Source: Phaeocystidibacter marisrubri (GTDB taxonomy: Bacteria > Bacteroidota > Bacteroidia > Flavobacteriales > Schleiferiaceae). From it: a stretch of DNA of 64,000 bases. Both the position numbers and the translations under genes were made by a program. Below, one piece after another: positions 31,747-37,491 of the stretch. The stretch spans positions 1-64,000 of the forward strand of contig NZ_WBVQ01000002.1 of NCBI RefSeq assembly GCF_008933165.1, read 5' to 3'. How positions within the stretch are numbered: position 1 is the stretch's first letter; each line of letters begins with the position of its first letter. The notes beneath the pieces are model-generated. The model worked only from the letters and a program-made list of their open reading frames with translations. It was not told the origin of the DNA and searched no databases.

Positions 31747-32412
31747 ATGAAATATGGACTCAGTATTTTCTTTTCAGTATTATTCACACTCGGAATGGTT
31801 AGGGATACTCAATCTCAAAACATCAAAATTGATGGATATTGGGGCTATCCTGAATTTGAGAATGGTAGTCTAGATGAGCTGTATCCGCATGGGTTTTCAT
31901 GGGATGAATTAAGTAGTGTAGCTGACTTTTACCGCCAAATTGCCTGCGAAGGAGGGTCGATTGAAGAAGACAAAATCAGGGAGGCCTTCTATAATGATAA
32001 GAGAATATCAATACTTCGATTTGGTATTAATGAAGCATCAGAAGCCCTTACTCACGAAGTGCTTGAAGATGTAAATGTCGATTCACTACAATACGAACTT
32101 TACAAATTTGATAATAACGAACCTCAACCGAGTATTAACGGCCATAGGGTATACATGTCTGGGCATTGTAATACAGGAATCTGCTCATTCAGTTCTCACA
32201 CTTGTTATGTCGGAGGTGGTGTTATGATTAAGGCTTCTGCTAAATACTTTTGGATTCCATTAGTTAAAATCGACGGAGACAGTAAGCTTCAATATTTCTC
32301 CTATATCAAGGACAATCAACTTTTTGTTATTCAAATTTATCCGCATTCCTTCAATCATTATGATAGGATATCGACAGGTCAGAAAGTGATTAATCTTGAG
32401 GAGTTTTTTTAG
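31747..32412 (+). CDS. secreted protein of unknown function
   Basis: 221 residues. Signal peptide MKYGLSIFFSVLFTLGMVRDTQS-QN at about 1-24. Four cysteines in HCNTGICSFSSHTCYVGGG and one at CEGG suggest disulfides. Mixed alpha/beta and acidic. No family recognised. Flanked on both sides by exact 21-bp repeats (31630 and 32654), hinting that it moved as a unit or arose by duplication. Confidence 0.6.
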   Translation: MKYGLSIFFSVLFTLGMVRDTQSQNIKIDGYWGYPEFENGSLDELYPHGFSWDELSSVADFYRQIACEGGSIEEDKIREAFYNDKRISILRFGINEASEALTHEVLEDVNVDSLQYELYKFDNNEPQPSINGHRVYMSGHCNTGICSFSSHTCYVGGGVMIKASAKYFWIPLVKIDGDSKLQYFSYIKDNQLFVIQIYPHSFNHYDRISTGQKVINLEEFF

Positions 32413-32766
32413 AAGAGTCATTTCTTCAGGACTCATACTGGTTGTAATGTTGGAGTATGATCCCAGAATGAGCTAGATTGAACCAATGACCTTTGAACTA
32501 ATCTCACAGAATAACAAATTCTCCAACCTATAAAAACAGTACACCTCAGAATATATGTCGACCACTGCTTCATCGAGGTAACATGGCATATTACAATTCT
32601 TATTCTATTTCATCTTTGCTAATTAAAAGTATCTTCGAGCTAAGGTCACCAACTGAGAACTTCTGAGCGAGAAGCCCTCTGCACTGAGAAGTCTCTAAAT
32701 CGTAACCCTTCTGAGAAACATAGCTCTGAAACATTGATTTTCAGGACGATATATGAGAGGTTCATT
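32413..32766. other. gene-free stretch with one repeat
   Basis: No supported gene on either strand. It contains the second copy of the 21-bp repeat at 32654-32674, followed by degenerate gagaag/tctct motifs to about 32720. The AT-rich remainder shows nothing I can name. Confidence 0.6.
32654..32674 (+). repeat. 21-bp direct repeat, copy 2
   Basis: Exact copy of 31630-31650. Confidence 0.7.
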
Positions 32767-32989
32767 TCCCCCTCTCACCGCGAAACTTGAAAACCCCGCA
32801 AAGCAATGCTTTGTGGGGTTTTTACTTTTTAGAGCTTTCCTCAAAGCTCCGCTTTGAAAGGAAAGAAATGAAAAGTAAAAACCAGGATACGACGAAGGAG
32901 TAGCCGCAGGTTTTCAAGTTTAGCACAGGTTTCCCCTTATGGGATCACAGCCGAAGCACAGCGGAGGTTGTAATCGCCAAGCTCCCCTT
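32767..32989 (+). repeat. direct repeat copy 2, contains tRNA-Ser 3' end
   Basis: Starts with the last 14 nt of tRNA-Ser(GCT) and continues through the same terminator and palindromes as 21652-21874, in the same orientation. The 5' part of the tRNA is missing, as expected for an attachment-site duplication. Confidence 0.9.
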
Positions 32990-32993
32990 TTAA

Positions 32994-33107
32994 AGAAATG
33001 AAAAGTAAAAACTAGGATACGACGAAGGAGTAGCCGTGGGTTTTCAAGTTTAGCACAGGTTTCCCCTTATGGGATCACAGCTGAAGCGAAGCGGAGGTTG
33101 TAATCCC
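32994..33107 (+). repeat. direct repeat copy 3, partial
   Basis: A third copy covering only the downstream half of the unit (from aaagaaatgaaaagtaaaaa to ggttgtaatccc), placed in tandem right after copy 2. It lacks the tRNA end and terminator. The stretch 33108-33394 that follows has no recognisable feature. Confidence 0.85.
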
Positions 33108-33394
33108 TTGGAATCCTTTACCGAGATAGATCATAGAAAAATAGAACTTGCGGATCATTGAATAACTCTAAAATGGTCTCGAATTGTGAATAGGAAATTG
33201 GCAGAGGATATGACAATGATATCGATGACAAGGAAGTAGAAAGTTTCAATTAGCGTGAGAGAGGGCCGAGGGGACTTTTTCTTTTTGTAGATTTAACCTG
33301 ATGCTTGTTCTCTCAAATCTATTCATATCAAGATCATTTCAGAGATAAAGCAAGTCCAAACTGAATATGTCAACGAGTTGTGCATAATTAGAAA

Positions 33395-33985
33395 ATGGAC
33401 AAGCAAGAACTTGTAGAGCATATTAAATCCAAGAAAGAATTGGATATCTATTATGACTATTTGCTAGGTCAAGAGGTTTGGTATTTCCAGAACAATGGAC
33501 CAGACTTCAGTTCTGATTATGATCAGTTCAAAAAATTTATTTCAAGAAACCTTGGCATTCCTTTTAATAATATTTCGATTGTAGGAAGTGCAAAGACACG
33601 CTACAGTTTCTCTCCTTCAAAGAATTTCTCTGAATTTCATGAAGAGTCTGATTTCGATTTAATAATTGTATCAAGAAGGCTATTCTATGACATTTGGGAA
33701 GCATATCGCAAGATTTCCAACAACCAGTTCTTACATGGTTATGAATATAAGTGCGGCAATGTATTTAATGGATTTGTAAGTCTAAAAGATGATGATAGAA
33801 CTTATGGAAATGAAACCTTAGAGAAGTGGCAAAAGCTAATTCTTTCTTTTAAAGCAGAATTACAATTGAAATTCAATATTCAACACGAAATCAACTATCG
33901 CATATATTCCGATTGGGAATCTGTTGAAGCATACCATTTAAAAGGTATTACAAAACTTAAAAACACACTAGATGAAACTAATTGA
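33395..33985 (+). CDS. nucleotidyltransferase-like protein, partner of DUF262 gene
   Basis: 196 residues. A nucleotidyltransferase-fold signature is visible at about 62-93: IVGSAKTRYSFSP, then EESDFDLIIVSRRLF, i.e. the G-S helix start and the D-x-D metal motif followed by a hydrophobic strand. The remainder is helical with basic surface. Such minimal NTases add nucleotides to small molecules, RNAs or proteins and occur in toxin-antitoxin and defence loci. Its last 14 nt overlap the DUF262 gene in another frame, so the two are co-translated. Substrate unknown. Confidence 0.65.
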   Translation: MDKQELVEHIKSKKELDIYYDYLLGQEVWYFQNNGPDFSSDYDQFKKFISRNLGIPFNNISIVGSAKTRYSFSPSKNFSEFHEESDFDLIIVSRRLFYDIWEAYRKISNNQFLHGYEYKCGNVFNGFVSLKDDDRTYGNETLEKWQKLILSFKAELQLKFNIQHEINYRIYSDWESVEAYHLKGITKLKNTLDETN

Positions 33986-35036
33986 ACAAATAGACATACA
34001 ACCACAAAGTGCCAAATGGCTTCATGATCTCAATGACAAAGGGCTTTTAGAGGTTGACAACTCTTTTCAAAGACACTACGTTTGGACTCTCAAAAATCAA
34101 GTTCAACTTATAGAATCTATTCTTTTAGGTTATCCAATACCAGAAATCTATTTATGGAATACAGGAACTGATGAAGATACAGGAGATACCAAATACTCTA
34201 TCATTGATGGGCAACAGAGGTGTGGTGCAATTTTTCAATTTATTGCCAATACTTTTAAGCTCAAGGAGAATCACTTAGACTCAAATAGTAACAAGTTCGC
34301 AGTAATCAAGAATCGCCATTTCAAGGACTTGGAGACGGAAGAAAAAAAAGCTCTATGGGCCTACATATTTTCAATAAGGTTAGTTAGATCTCAAGTTGAC
34401 CGAGATTCCATTGTCAAAATGTTTCTACGACTGAATAGTAATAACATGACGCTTAATCCTCAGGAATTAAGAAATGCCGAGTTTGAAGGTGAGTTTATGA
34501 CACTCGCATCTACGCTTGCCGATTTAGATTTTTGGGAGGAAAACAAAATTTTTGGTGTAGCCGACAGACGAAGAATGAGGGATATATCATTTATTGGTAC
34601 CCTTCTCGTATTCATGAAAAAGGGCATCTCAGAGGATATTTCGAATGCCAATTTGAATCAGATATACGATTTGTATAACGATGAATATCCGGATAAAGAA
34701 AAGGATCAAGAGAAATTTGAATTTATCTTAAGCTCCATTCACGAAATCATTAATTCAAATTCAGATAGAATGAAATTCCTTAGAAGGCAAGTTCATATGT
34801 ACTCCTTGTTCACCGTGGTTTATGATATATTAAGTGATAATGATAATTTGACAGATGAGCAAATACTCAATTATCAAAACTTCATTGACAATTATGATAA
34901 CGATGAACTCTTAGAAAAGCACTTTTCAGACCTCATGTCCGAAGTATATCAATATAAATCCCTATCAAAAGAAGGGACAAGGCAAAAATCTAATCGGTTT
35001 GAACGACACCGAATTTTGAAGAAAATAATAAAATAA
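33972..35036 (+). CDS. DUF262 (GmrS-like/ParB-fold) domain protein
   Basis: 354 residues. The N-terminal DUF262 domain shows FQRHYVWTLKNQVQLIESILLGYPIPEIYLW (about 34-64) and the YSIIDGQQRCGAI motif (about 75-87), as in the GmrS half of the GmrSD type IV restriction enzymes and related NTPase/nuclease proteins. The C-terminal 200 residues are helical and acidic and do not resemble the GmrD (DUF1524) His-Me nuclease. Role in anti-phage defence is plausible given the family and the overlapping nucleotidyltransferase gene, but is inference. Confidence 0.75.
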   Translation: MKLIEQIDIQPQSAKWLHDLNDKGLLEVDNSFQRHYVWTLKNQVQLIESILLGYPIPEIYLWNTGTDEDTGDTKYSIIDGQQRCGAIFQFIANTFKLKENHLDSNSNKFAVIKNRHFKDLETEEKKALWAYIFSIRLVRSQVDRDSIVKMFLRLNSNNMTLNPQELRNAEFEGEFMTLASTLADLDFWEENKIFGVADRRRMRDISFIGTLLVFMKKGISEDISNANLNQIYDLYNDEYPDKEKDQEKFEFILSSIHEIINSNSDRMKFLRRQVHMYSLFTVVYDILSDNDNLTDEQILNYQNFIDNYDNDELLEKHFSDLMSEVYQYKSLSKEGTRQKSNRFERHRILKKIIK

Positions 35037-35050
35037 CTATGCACAACATC

Positions 35051-35088
35051 GTGTATAGCACATACCCTGCGGGATACGTGCCATACAC
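35051..35088 (+). repeat. imperfect hairpin element, attC-like in shape
   Basis: The arms gtgtatagcac (35051-35061) and gtgccatacac (35078-35088) pair over 11 bp with one mismatch, with a ccctgcggg mini-stem inside. Flanking acaac upstream and ccgttagcc downstream recall the core boxes of integron attC sites but do not match their consensus. It separates the DUF262 gene from the frameshifted DUF4304 gene. Confidence 0.4.
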
Positions 35089-35115
35089 ATGGCCGTTAGC
35101 CCCTAGCTGAAAAAG

Positions 35116-35636
35116 ATGACCGCTAAAGACAAGCAGATAGAATTCATAAAGTCTTATTTGAAGCCGAAACTCAAAGACGAAGGTTTTCGCACGTCAGACA
35201 AACCTGGTGGAAAATAAATGATGACTTCTGTGTCGTGATTAATCTTCAAAACTCACAATGGAACAGTAAGGAATTGTTAAGCTTTTGTTCTAATATCGGC
35301 GTTGGACTGACAGAGAACCTTAAAGACCCCAGTAGAAAAAAGGCGACTTACTTTGATATAGTAACAAATCTGAGAGAAGAGGCATACTTATCGGACGACA
35401 GGAAGAAACACAGGTTTAGACCTGAAAGTGGGCTTGGCTACACATTGACTACCCACACTAACCTAGCAGACTTTATCTCGGAGCTCAGCATTGATTTTGA
35501 AAGCGATATTCTACCGAAATTAGGAAGCCTGAGAACCATTCAAGATTGTTTAGACTTCTATCGACAATTTGATATTTGGGGAAAACAACTTCAGAATCAA
35601 GTTGATCGATTGAAGCTCAAGCAGGATGTCAACTAA
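35116..35636 (+). pseudogene. DUF4304-like gene with a frameshift
   Basis: Frame 1 from ATG 35116 reads MTAKDKQIEFIKSYLKPKLK and stops shortly after the segment RTSDK near 35216. The rest of the domain continues in another frame as WWKINDDFCVVINLQNSQWN and onward, open to the stop at 35636. The break falls in the run gacaaacctgg near 35200; one extra A would restore a single 170-odd-residue DUF4304-like protein. It is either a real inactivating deletion or a base-calling error. The downstream part alone (35235-35636) would be 133 residues. Confidence 0.65.
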
Positions 35637-35683
35637 GACCACCCACGTCCGATTTAACGGATGTGCGTTTCCAAGAAAACAAC

Positions 35684-36268
35684 ATGAAACGTCTCTTCTC
35701 CTTCCGTAAAACGCAAAATCTTGACACCAATGAGTTGAAACGTGCTCTTTATCATGCAGATCTAAAGACGATCAAGGAGTTTGTGAAAAACGGACTCGAT
35801 GTGAATCAGCAAATTGAAAGTTTCGATTCAGACTCTATTTTGATAAGGGCCATTCCTTGTTCTCCTGAAAAAAGAGGATCAAAACAACATTTAGGAGTAA
35901 TTGATTACTTGCTGAGTCAAGGTGCAGATATCAATCAATATAATATGGACGGATACAACTCCCTTCATATAGCTCTTTCCCACCATGACTTATCTGGAGT
36001 TTCACTCTCCCTACTTGAGAACGGTGAAGCCAATGTGAATTTAGCGGATAAGCCCAATGGCAACACTCCCCTCTTCATCGCGATTCGAGAATATGGTCTC
36101 ACCTGGCGAGAAGATCAAAAGGAGGTGAATCATCTGCGGTATAAAATCATCGAGAAGTTACTCAATCGTGGTGCCCAACTAGACCATCCCAACATCCACG
36201 GCGTCACTCCCAGATTTTGGACAGAAAGGCTGAATTCTGATGACCCGATTCATGCTCTTCTCACGTAA
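35684..36268 (+). CDS. ankyrin-repeat protein
   Basis: 194 residues from ATG 35684 (MKRLFSFRKTQN). Three or more ankyrin units are visible: LKTIKEFVKNGLDVNQ, HLGVIDYLLSQGADINQYNMDGYNSLHIAL and RYKIIEKLLNRGAQLDHPNIHGVTP. Ankyrin proteins mediate protein binding; no catalytic domain is present. Cytoplasmic by lack of signal peptide. Probably accessory, lying between a broken gene and a gene remnant. Confidence 0.8.
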   Translation: MKRLFSFRKTQNLDTNELKRALYHADLKTIKEFVKNGLDVNQQIESFDSDSILIRAIPCSPEKRGSKQHLGVIDYLLSQGADINQYNMDGYNSLHIALSHHDLSGVSLSLLENGEANVNLADKPNGNTPLFIAIREYGLTWREDQKEVNHLRYKIIEKLLNRGAQLDHPNIHGVTPRFWTERLNSDDPIHALLT

Positions 36269-36530
36269 CCCTCAACCTTCAGAGCCCTACACTTCCCGTA
36301 TTTGCTCACTTCCGCACGATTTTGCGCTTTGCTTTTCCCTCTGCCCGTTCTAAAATTGTCCTAGTCAATTAACACTGACTAGTGATAAGATTGGAAATAA
36401 AATATCACCTTACTTCAAAAGCACGCCACAAAATATGTTCAACCATAACTTTCTTAAATTGACCAAATGAATGTATGGCGCCTCATGAACACAATTGCCC
36501 ATTCGACGGTTGCATCGATATCATGAGTAA

Positions 36531-36725
36531 GATCCTGAATTTGAAGGTGGAGAATTTGAACTGAATAATCTACTTCACTGTTCAATTGAAATGCCTCTTA
36601 CTAAGGCCTGTGAATTTTTTCCAGAGGATGAGAAAGAAGAACGTATGTTCAAGTCTTACGCGGAATTCCCCTTCAACGAAATACACAAAGCCAAACCATC
36701 ACAACCCCCTCAAAAACTAATTTAA
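36531..36725 (+). pseudogene. remnant of an unidentified gene
   Basis: An open stretch of 64 codons (DPEFEGGEFELNNLLHCSIE and onward) preceded directly by an in-frame TAA, with no start codon of its own near its beginning. The composition is protein-like and acidic. Upstream sequence to about 36370 contains other short protein-like pieces in different frames. It looks like the C-terminal end of a decayed gene. The interval 36269-36530 otherwise shows nothing. Confidence 0.4.
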
Positions 36726-36726
36726 C

Positions 36727-37491
36727 TTGCAACAGAAAATAAGCATATTGGGATGTGGCTGGCTGGGATCGGCCTTGGCCACTGAATTAATCCGCAGTGG
36801 CTATGAAGTGGCTGGCTCAACCACTTCGCTGGAAAAAATGAGCGACCTGTCGGAAGCGGGAATTAAGCCATTTCTCATGAACATAAGTTCGATAGACTCT
36901 ACGATTCAGAACTTTCTATCTGCCGAGATTTTGATTGTGGCCATAACGAGTAAGAACATCGAGCATTTTGTGGATCTTATCGAATGTTTGGAGGCCTCTG
37001 AGGTACAAAAAGTGCTCTTCATTAGTTCCACCTCTGTCTACCCAAACACCAATGAAGTGGTCAGGGAAAGCACGAATACCTTGCTTACCCCTCTTGTTGA
37101 AATTGAACAACTATTCACCTCAAACCCTTCTTTTCACTCCACCATTCTTAGGTTCGGTGGTCTCTTTGGCTATGACCGTAAGCCTGGAAACTTTGTTCGA
37201 TCCAAGAAACGTATTCCAAACCCTGAAGGGTACATCAACTTTATTCATAGAGATGATTGCATCGCGATAATCGGAGAAATAATTAAACAGAACGCGTGGG
37301 ACGAAATCTTTAATGCCTGTTCCGATAGTCATCCTAAGCGAAGAGATTTCTACCGTAAAGAAGCGAGAAAAATAGGTCTTGACTCCATTGAGTTCGACGA
37401 AGACTCCAAGAATGAATTCAAAATCGTCAACTCCGAGAAACTAAAGGCACACTTGGGGTACAGCTTCAAGTATTCCGATTTAATGGAGTAA
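36727..37491 (+). CDS. SDR-type NAD(P)-binding epimerase/reductase family protein
   Basis: 254 residues from a TTG start at 36727. The N-terminal dinucleotide-binding motif ISILGCGWLGSAL (about 5-17) is the YeeZ-like variant; VLFISSTSVYPN (about 96-107) is the strand with the SSTSVY substitution for the usual active-site triad; the segment ILRFGGLFGYDR follows near 138. Extended SDR proteins of this type often have unknown substrates. Standalone gene, followed by a terminator. Confidence 0.8.
   Translation: MQQKISILGCGWLGSALATELIRSGYEVAGSTTSLEKMSDLSEAGIKPFLMNISSIDSTIQNFLSAEILIVAITSKNIEHFVDLIECLEASEVQKVLFISSTSVYPNTNEVVRESTNTLLTPLVEIEQLFTSNPSFHSTILRFGGLFGYDRKPGNFVRSKKRIPNPEGYINFIHRDDCIAIIGEIIKQNAWDEIFNACSDSHPKRRDFYRKEARKIGLDSIEFDEDSKNEFKIVNSEKLKAHLGYSFKYSDLME

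What the first reader, a model, noticed from the sequence alone, without database searches (positions are those of the whole stretch)
33395..35036. Nucleotidyltransferase overlapping a DUF262 gene: possible two-part defence system
A minimal nucleotidyltransferase with intact D-F-D motif shares 14 nt with a DUF262 protein that lacks the GmrD nuclease half. Co-translation implies function as a pair. The NTase may modify the DUF262 protein or an RNA, or make a nucleotide signal.
Basis: partly seen in the sequence, partly recalled or inferred. Interest (0 to 1): 0.65.

Follow-up and report, generated by a model that had tools for sequence, protein, structure and literature searches.

The report
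Mobile nucleotidyltransferase–DUF262 gene pair
Two overlapping genes that travel together on prophages, plasmids and cassette-like elements in distant bacteria look like a two-protein anti-phage system, pairing a known regulator type with an enzyme that no defence catalogue I searched lists as its partner.

Summary
A 196-aa putative nucleotidyltransferase (NTase, 33395-33985) overlaps by 14 nt a 354-aa DUF262 gene (33972-35036) that has QR, DGQQR and FxxxN motifs but no DUF1524 nuclease half. The two genes are inherited as a unit (distance correlation 0.96) and are under purifying selection. The pair sits in the P2 gpA-gpQ anti-phage hotspot (3 loci), at other prophage sites, on a 6.2-kb plasmid, in what looks like an integron cassette array, and once in an operon with a C5 methyltransferase; in the window it also looks like a two-gene cassette. 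The DUF262 resembles PADLOC NsnA and PD-T4-2_A. PADLOC and NCBIfam have no match for the NTase; Pfam matches only below cut-off. Most likely it is an anti-phage module in which DUF262 senses infection and gates a nucleotidylating effector. Which protein is effector, and catalysis itself, are not shown: the fold match is weak and a third catalytic acid is present in only 9 of 21. New variant of a known kind, untested.

The parts
33395..33985 (+). putative nucleotidyltransferase gene, 196 aa
   Evidence: ORF; AlphaFold2 model mean pLDDT 84.4; weak second-look structure matches led by HI0073 (Z 5.3), with an unrelated BolA-like chain tied at Z 5.1; 21-copy alignment
33584..33589 (+). codons for G64-S65 of the NTase motif
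   Evidence: invariant in 21 of 21 aligned copies
33650..33658 (+). codons for D86-F87-D88 (DxD motif)
   Evidence: both Asp invariant in 21 of 21
33887..33889 (+). codon for E165, my candidate for the third carboxylate (inferred from strand order)
   Evidence: Glu/Asp in 9 of 21 copies, Lys/Thr/Ile in 12; predicted strand 165-171
33972..33985 (+). 14-nt overlap of the two genes
   Evidence: the same in L002, L003, L016
33972..35036 (+). short DUF262 (GmrSD_N) gene, 354 aa, no DUF1524
   Evidence: PF03235 E 5.4e-28; PADLOC NsnA 1.1e-39, PD-T4-2_A 2.4e-21
34068..34073 (+). codons for the QR motif (Q33-R34)
   Evidence: invariant in 19 of 19 aligned copies; motif named in a passage of PMC12137116
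34206..34220 (+). codons for DGQQR (D79-R83), NTP pocket motif
   Evidence: invariant in 19 of 19; role of the motif from a passage of PMC10952713
34422..34436 (+). codons for the FxxxN motif (F151-N155)
   Evidence: invariant in 19 of 19; motif named in a passage of PMC12137116
33377..33383 (+). GTTGTGC, putative attC R' core at the 5' edge of a two-gene cassette (chosen by eye)
   Evidence: exact reverse complement of GCACAAC at 35041-35047
35041..35101 (+). attC-like site 3' of the pair; the bottom strand folds into one long hairpin
   Evidence: bottom strand z -2.0; 7 of 200 shuffles as good; best candidate of its stretch

Best explanation
The two genes form one mobile, probably translationally coupled anti-phage (or anti-mobile-element) module. 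The short DUF262 protein is an NTP-binding sensor/regulator of the kind that controls partner effectors in GmrSD, SspE and, probably, PD-T4-2-like systems. The NTase is the catalytic partner: when DUF262 detects infection it releases or activates the NTase, which transfers nucleotides onto a cellular target (most likely an RNA end such as tRNA, otherwise a protein) and so stops phage growth. Shown here: conserved pairing, co-inheritance, kept DxD and DGQQR motifs, purifying selection on both genes, mobility and hotspot locations. Inferred: anti-phage function, DUF262 as sensor, NTase as effector, its activity and its target.
For: DUF262 follows the NTase at 23 of 28 loci examined, at -14 to +12 nt (21; L085 and L086). 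Distance correlation of the two proteins r = 0.96 over 21 pairs (0.953 over 17), 0 of 9999 permutations as high; this shows inheritance as a unit, not contact. dN/dS 0.026-0.065 in the 7 of 16 gene comparisons that were not saturated. A DUF262 profile at E<=1e-60 in 346 genomes of the order found 5 loci, all 5 NTase-paired (3 of the 5 are in the profile). P2 hotspot: L061 (Pfam-checked), L063 (by likeness of its frames) and E. coli 1500 (annotation) carry the pair between gpA and the portal/terminase genes, the place of old/tin and a known anti-phage hotspot (passages of PMC9122126). L059 lies beside a CI-like repressor; L062 between an antiterminator Q-like gene and an endolysin, with a KAP NTPase. 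L035 is in one operon with a C5 methyltransferase; L056 has an Mrr_cat gene next to it. Among 8 other DUF262 loci opened by hand, adjacent genes include HEPN (L042; PD-T4-2_B, weak E 0.00044), AAA ATPase (L038; DUF262 matches NsnA at 9.9e-109) and a protein kinase (L041).
Against: No functional data. The third catalytic carboxylate used by MntA (D71; passage of PMC7641770) has an acidic counterpart at my candidate position in only 9 of 21 NTases, so catalysis by the larger clade is uncertain. Structure support is weak: Foldseek none at E<=0.001, best second-look Z 5.3 with a BolA-like chain tied at 5.1 and ribosomal S3 chains at 3.5-3.8. The NTase also occurs with a different partner (transglycosylase-like, 4 loci) and once with neither (L021). 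Beside the window pair the only other PADLOC match among the 4 proteins scanned is the ankyrin protein at 35663-36268 (candidate model PDC-M72A, E 2.9e-10), which may be due to its repeats alone. A gpA-gpQ position is a place for phage accessory genes in general, not proof of defence.
Confidence: 0.42

Rival explanations
1. Reverse roles: the NTase is an antitoxin-like silencer that nucleotidylates the DUF262 protein, as MntA does to HepT, and DUF262 is the toxic or restricting part, freed when infection disturbs the NTase or its nucleotide.
For: The structure list is led by the MNT HI0073 (Z 5.3) and holds the MNT of an HEPN-MNT complex (7ae9, Z 3.5), both weak. MntA modifies its partner by its GS-DxD motif (passages of PMC7641770). 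Inheritance as a unit fits an enzyme whose substrate is its partner. Invariant Arg342 and Arg345 near the DUF262 C-terminus are unexplained.
Against: Spacing is GSX17-28DXD, not GSX10DXD. In SspE and BrxU the DUF262 domain is the regulator, not the poison (passages of PMC10952713). In L058 a transposase-like copy cuts the NTase while the DUF262 frame stays open, although its expression may be lost.
Confidence: 0.25
2. A plain addiction or toxin-antitoxin module that stabilises its carrier and has no defence role.
For: Carried on a 6.2-kb plasmid, prophages and cassette-like elements.
Against: Three occurrences in the gpA-gpQ anti-phage hotspot and one in a methyltransferase operon fit defence better; addiction and defence are not exclusive.
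Confidence: 0.13
3. CBASS-like signalling: the NTase makes a nucleotide messenger that DUF262 binds.
For: Two PADLOC oligonucleotide-cyclase models each match one of the 10 NTases of A3 weakly (best E 0.0018); CdnD and cGAS appear low in the structure list; DUF262 has a nucleotide pocket.
Against: The window NTase itself has no PADLOC match. At 196 aa the model shows little beyond a core and flanking helices. I saw no other gene conserved beside the pair, though most flanking genes were not searched.
Confidence: 0.08
4. The pair is the effector half of a modification-dependent restriction system: DUF262 reads DNA modification and the NTase acts on cut or marked DNA ends.
For: DUF262 of GmrSD, BrxU, SspE and GrwAB is linked to DNA-modification sensing (passages); L035 shares an operon with a C5 methyltransferase.
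Against: Only in L035 did I recognise a methyltransferase in the same operon; most flanking genes were not searched against families. Small pol-beta-type NTases acting on DNA ends are rare (recalled).
Confidence: 0.1

Closest known systems
PD-T4-2 (DUF262 + HEPN)
   Same: Two small genes, one a DUF262 protein without DUF1524; the window DUF262 matches PD-T4-2_A at 2.4e-21. PMC10952713 (passages) lists PD-T4-2 under both DUF262 and HEPN; deleting it in its native strain raised T4 plating (passage of PMC9519451).
   Different: HEPN partner, downstream of DUF262 in the one likeness opened here (L042); here an NTase, upstream. The L042 DUF262 is a long, distant branch in the tree.
NsnA (PADLOC model PDLC03877)
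   Same: Best PADLOC model for the window DUF262 (1.1e-39, nearly full length).
   Different: The strongest NsnA match seen here lies beside an AAA ATPase (L038). Two paper searches found nothing on Nsn, so its definition is not known to me.
GmrSD / BrxU / SspE
   Same: DUF262 domain with QR, DGQQR and FxxxN.
   Different: No DUF1524 nuclease domain found; an NTase gene instead.
TgvAB / GrwAB of Vibrio cholerae
   Same: Two-gene defence systems with a DUF262 protein (passages of PMC12137116 and PMC12409362).
   Different: Both proteins there have DUF262 and one also DUF1524.
HEPN-MNT (HepT/MntA, type VII toxin-antitoxin)
   Same: Two-gene module with a small GS...DxD NTase.
   Different: No HEPN; motif spacing 17-28, not 10; third carboxylate often absent.
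CBASS CD-NTases
   Same: GS...DxD NTase; weak PADLOC cyclase matches in homologues.
   Different: Much smaller protein; no typical CBASS effector recognised beside it.

Membership tests
GmrSD type IV restriction family | DUF262 with QR, DGQQR, FxxxN | tested here: met
GmrSD type IV restriction family | DUF1524 His-Me nuclease domain or partner | tested here: not met
   Only GmrSD_N in the 354-aa protein; no DUF1524 in the other 5 proteins of the Pfam scan
PD-T4-2 | PD-T4-2_A-like DUF262 protein | tested here: met
   PDLC04027 E 2.4e-21
PD-T4-2 | HEPN partner (PD-T4-2_B) | tested here: not met
   The NTase has no PADLOC match and no HEPN in Pfam
Nsn (PADLOC) | NsnA-like DUF262 | tested here: met
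   PDLC03877 E 1.1e-39
Nsn (PADLOC) | remaining Nsn components | tested here: inconclusive
   No other Nsn model matched; published definition not found
HEPN-MNT type VII toxin-antitoxin | GSX10DXD in the NTase | tested here: not met
   GSX20DXD in the window; 17-28 in 21 of 21
HEPN-MNT type VII toxin-antitoxin | adjacent HEPN gene | tested here: not met
   The adjacent gene is DUF262
HEPN-MNT type VII toxin-antitoxin | NMP transfer to the partner | not testable with these tools
   Needs biochemistry
Pol-beta nucleotidyltransferase superfamily | GS...DxD motif | tested here: met
   Invariant in 21 of 21
Pol-beta nucleotidyltransferase superfamily | pol-beta core fold | tested here: inconclusive
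   Model pLDDT 84.4; by my reading of the titles 25 of the 50 VIA rows are such NTases, but best Z is 5.3 and a BolA-like chain has 5.1; Foldseek none at E<=0.001; Pfam below cut-off
CBASS | CD-NTase family membership | tested here: inconclusive
   No match for the window protein; best E 0.0018 among 10 homologues; low structural ranks
Integron gene cassette | attC: complementary R''/R' cores and bottom-strand hairpin | tested here: met
   Window: 7 of 7 core complement and hairpin, best candidate of its stretch. L016: complement holds for the pair's cassette and the next one. Sites picked by eye; the scan did not set the L016 and L002 sites apart from background, and L002 fails the complement test
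Integron gene cassette | integron integrase in the same genome | tested here: not met
   No match over the TIGR02249 cut-off in the window's genome nor in the L016 record or L002's genome; L016's record has only a weak N-terminal fragment, and sub-cut-off matches occur in all 14 control genomes

The most novel reading that the evidence does not exclude
A previously undescribed anti-phage system in which an NTase and a DUF262 NTPase regulate each other by nucleotidylation: the NTase modifies the DUF262 sensor (or is itself gated by it) as an infection switch, and one branch does this with only two of the three usual catalytic carboxylates.
Probability: 0.22. Interest if true: 0.78.

Novelty: new variant of a known kind. 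Interest (0 to 1): 0.6.

Why it matters
DUF262 proteins without a nuclease half are common and their mode of action is open. This pair shows a partner for which the defence models I could search have no match, conserved from the window's phylum to E. coli and sitting in the P2 gpA-gpQ anti-phage hotspot. Because one natural copy lies in an E. coli P2-like prophage, the question 'what does DUF262 control when there is no nuclease?' becomes testable with standard coliphages in laboratory strains.

Tried and rejected
Scans that led nowhere: viral contigs with A1 (249 stretches, no relative) and with the L032 NTase; phage tblastn with the L016 and L032 NTases (no match); plasmid tblastn with the L005/L022 NTase. 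Rfam over 32000-37000 at E<=5 gave 5 matches, all below gathering score. PDB sequence search with the NTase profile gave no credible relative (10 matches, best E 0.0033, a designed TIM barrel). Foldseek of the NTase model gave nothing at E<=0.001. The DUF262 model was poor (pLDDT 59.5) and was not searched.

Rejected or dropped: six weak matches (E 0.0066-0.0097, L010-L015) were not counted as NTases; one of them (G386) was read with flanks as L023 and I saw no such gene, the other five were not opened. L003 and L060 were left out of the DUF262 tree and invariant list because contig ends cut the gene. L058's NTase is truncated and was kept in the 21. L085's NTase is identical to L065's, so 23 paired loci hold 22 distinct NTases; L085 and L086 are not in the 21-row statistics. 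Two more E. coli records (H76, H77, same match as H75) were not opened. L004 is the same contig as L003, and L064, L066, L067 the same contigs as L062, L061, L063: counted once. In the script the NTase frames of L033 and L055 begin one codon off the ATG. Genome searches score only some first-look candidates (for example 7 of 36), so their tallies may be low. Of the 767 plasmid and 29 phage records with a DUF262 match I opened 8 beyond L016 and L030, chosen by hand. The CBASS reading was considered and rated low. That nobody has described the pair rests only on the paper searches (4 papers; 1; 30 listed of 1,062; 15); most subscription papers are not in the library and supplementary tables (for example of the P2-hotspot survey) could not be read.

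Full report
What is there. The window holds two + strand ORFs, 33395-33985 (196 aa) and 33972-35036 (354 aa), overlapping by 14 nt. The first carries GS (64-65) and SDFD (85-88). Pfam's NTP_transf_2 sees it only below cut-off; NCBIfam and PADLOC have no match at E<=1, and PHROGs places it in phrog_32008 of unknown function (E 3.5e-7). The second is a DUF262 protein (GmrSD_N, E 5.4e-28) without DUF1524. Its best PADLOC models are NsnA (1.1e-39) and PD-T4-2_A (2.4e-21).

Is the pair more than one genome's accident? Relatives of the NTase were collected from named genomes (Cyclobacterium, 94%; a Flavobacteriia MAG, 84%), whole genomes of the window's phylum, class and order, plasmids, viral contigs and E. 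coli. I examined 28 NTase loci. A short DUF262 gene directly follows on the same strand at 23: window, L002, L003, L016, L020, L022, L030, L032, L033, L034, L035, L055-L063, L065, L085, L086. Four (L017, L018, L019, L031) have instead a transglycosylase-like gene upstream (annotation in L017, Pfam in L031, likeness in L018 and L019), and one (L021) has neither. Spacing in the 21 pairs measured ranges from -14 to +12 nt, with first possible starts. The exact 14-nt overlap is shared by window, L002, L003 and L016; the distant L022 (25-29% identical NTase) shares it only if its TTG start is used. The NTase family is rare in the samples: 5 of 395 genomes of the phylum and 9 of 395 of the order, own genome and other-partner types included; not every candidate was scored, so these are lower bounds. 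It was not found in the two other genomes of the window's genus. In the reverse direction a profile of these DUF262s at E<=1e-60 found 5 loci in 346 genomes of the order, all five NTase-paired. Three of them are in the profile, so only two are independent, and three other paired genomes of the order (G032, G1057, G1063) did not appear, either not drawn or missed.

The two genes are inherited together. Over 21 pairs the distance matrices correlate at 0.96 (17 non-redundant pairs: 0.953), with 0 of 9999 permutations as high. This shows that they travel as a unit; it does not show contact. DUF262-paired and transglycosylase-paired NTases separate in the tree (98/96 support, with long branches). 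In the DUF262 tree the NTase-paired rows need 3 label changes (1 of 500 shuffles as low), with eight hand-picked other DUF262s scattered among them and several long branches, so a single origin of the pairing is neither shown nor excluded. Both genes are constrained: dN/dS 0.028 and 0.033 against Cyclobacterium, 0.026-0.065 in the 7 of 16 comparisons that were not saturated; dS is above 1 throughout, so the ratios are rough.

Active-site anatomy. G64, S65, S71, F81, S85, D86, D88 and Y180 are invariant in the 21 NTases. The predicted model has mean pLDDT 84.4. In a second look at Foldseek's candidates the best row is HI0073 (Z 5.3), and by my reading of the titles 25 of the 50 rows are pol-beta-type NTases, among them an HEPN-MNT antitoxin, AadA, CdnD, cGAS and terminal uridylyltransferases. 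But a BolA-like chain is tied at Z 5.1, ribosomal S3 chains follow, all Z values are low, and Foldseek itself reports no match at E<=0.001. The fold is therefore compatible with an NTase, not established. MntA of Shewanella uses D39, D41 and D71 for metal (passage of PMC7641770). The position that the strand order suggests for the third acid here is E165: it is Glu/Asp in 9 of 21 (the window's clade and L035) and Lys, Thr or Ile in 12. The window protein can therefore have a full set; the larger clade may not. In DUF262 the QR, DGQQR and FxxxN motifs, named in passages of PMC12137116, are invariant in the 19 full-length copies, as are R342 and R345 near the C-terminus.

How it moves, and where it sits. 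In two IMG/VR contigs (L061, L063) and in E. coli 1500 (L086) the pair lies between the replication gene gpA and the divergent portal/terminase genes of a P2-like prophage (L061 by Pfam; L063 by likeness of its frames; L086 by annotation). Passages of PMC9122126 describe this gpA-gpQ interval as the place of old and tin and as an anti-phage hotspot. L059 lies beside a CI-like repressor, L062 between an antiterminator Q-like gene and an endolysin together with a KAP NTPase, and L085 in an E. coli prophage upstream of antiterminator Q. A Cronobacter plasmid of 6233 bp carries the pair. In L020 it is bracketed by two copies of a gene pair that looks like a recombinase and a transposase (recognised by eye). 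In L035 a C5 methyltransferase frame runs directly into the NTase, and a second C5 methyltransferase with a weakly BsaWI-like gene lies on the other strand; L056 has an Mrr_cat gene next to it. In the window itself I saw no defence island: of 4 proteins scanned with PADLOC, besides DUF262 only an ankyrin protein at 35663-36268 matched a candidate model (PDC-M72A, E 2.9e-10).

A possible integron cassette. In the Pseudoalteromonas plasmid (L016) the pair looks like one cassette of an array: its 5' core GTTATGG and 3' core CCATAAC are exact reverse complements, and so are those of the next cassette (GTTATAT / ATATAAC); the core expected for the preceding one (GTTATAA) also occurs once in the 1.4 kb upstream. 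A weak N-terminal match to the integron integrase (29 bits, positions 1-48, a stop inside) lies about 1.2 kb upstream in the opposite orientation, but sub-cut-off matches to this family occur in all 14 control genomes. In the window the same signature is present: GTTGTGC at 33377 and GCACAAC at 35041, followed by an attC-like inverted repeat whose bottom strand forms a long hairpin (z -2.0; 7 of 200 shuffles as good). Against this: the cores were picked by eye and only four of the seven bases are informative; my simple attC scan ranked the window site first in its stretch (15.0 against 13.5) but did not set the L016 and L002 sites apart from background; L002 starts with a similar core but its 3' site does not complement it; no integron integrase passes the cut-off in the window's genome, and the 3' sequence occurs once in it.

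How it most likely works. In SspE and BrxU nucleotide binding and hydrolysis by DUF262 are coupled to sensing and to control of the nuclease, and DUF262 also occurs in PD-T4-2, Menshen and Dazbog without DUF1524 (passages of PMC10952713). Of 8 other short-DUF262 loci opened by hand, three have a recognisable adjacent candidate partner: HEPN (L042), AAA ATPase (L038) and protein kinase (L041). The common element is DUF262, so I read it as the sensor/gate and the variable gene as the effector. The effector here would be a nucleotidyltransferase acting on RNA or protein. The main rival reverses the roles, as in HEPN-MNT. Co-inheritance fits both. A messenger-making role is less likely because the enzyme is small and its match to cyclase models is weak or absent. 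None of this is shown by experiment.

Verdict. It is a new variant of a known kind: a DUF262 two-gene module with an NTase partner. I found no description of it in the searches made, of which I opened only passages of a few papers; absence from print is not established.

Noticed in passing
L017:7250-8504, L018:2175-3501, L019:5291-6575, L031:4481-5798: A second two-gene arrangement of the same NTase family: a short GT51-like transglycosylase gene (PF00912, E 1.6e-24 in L031; annotated so in L017; by likeness in L018 and L019) overlapping the start of the NTase gene. On the Aliarcobacter plasmid it is near genes annotated as AAA ATPase, phospholipase D-like and TIR. No PADLOC match in L031.
   Followed up: partly
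L021:7138-7848: An NTase of the family standing alone among genes that look like conjugation/mobilisation genes, with neither DUF262 nor transglycosylase beside it.
   Followed up: no
L058:1535-3042: A transposase-like copy interrupts the NTase near its 5' end, and an N-terminal piece matches on another contig of the same genome, while the DUF262 frame is open.
   Followed up: partly
window 35663-36268: Ankyrin-repeat protein (Ank_2 E 6.7e-12) that matches the PADLOC candidate defence model PDC-M72A (E 2.9e-10); the match may be to the repeats only.
   Followed up: no
window 32862-33105: Two 114-nt direct copies (95% identical, 130-nt spacing) just upstream of the pair, with inverted repeats nearby; Rfam gives only matches below gathering score.
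   Followed up: no
window 35115-35636: The gene directly after the attC-like site appears as two partial reading frames, so it looks broken; no Pfam match for the listed ORF.
   Followed up: no
L043:2938-4649: In an E. coli phage record a short DUF262 gene beside the integrase is followed by a 216-aa protein with no PADLOC match, another possible DUF262 partner.
   Followed up: no
L062:7121-8863: A KAP-family P-loop NTPase gene follows the pair inside the same prophage region.
   Followed up: no
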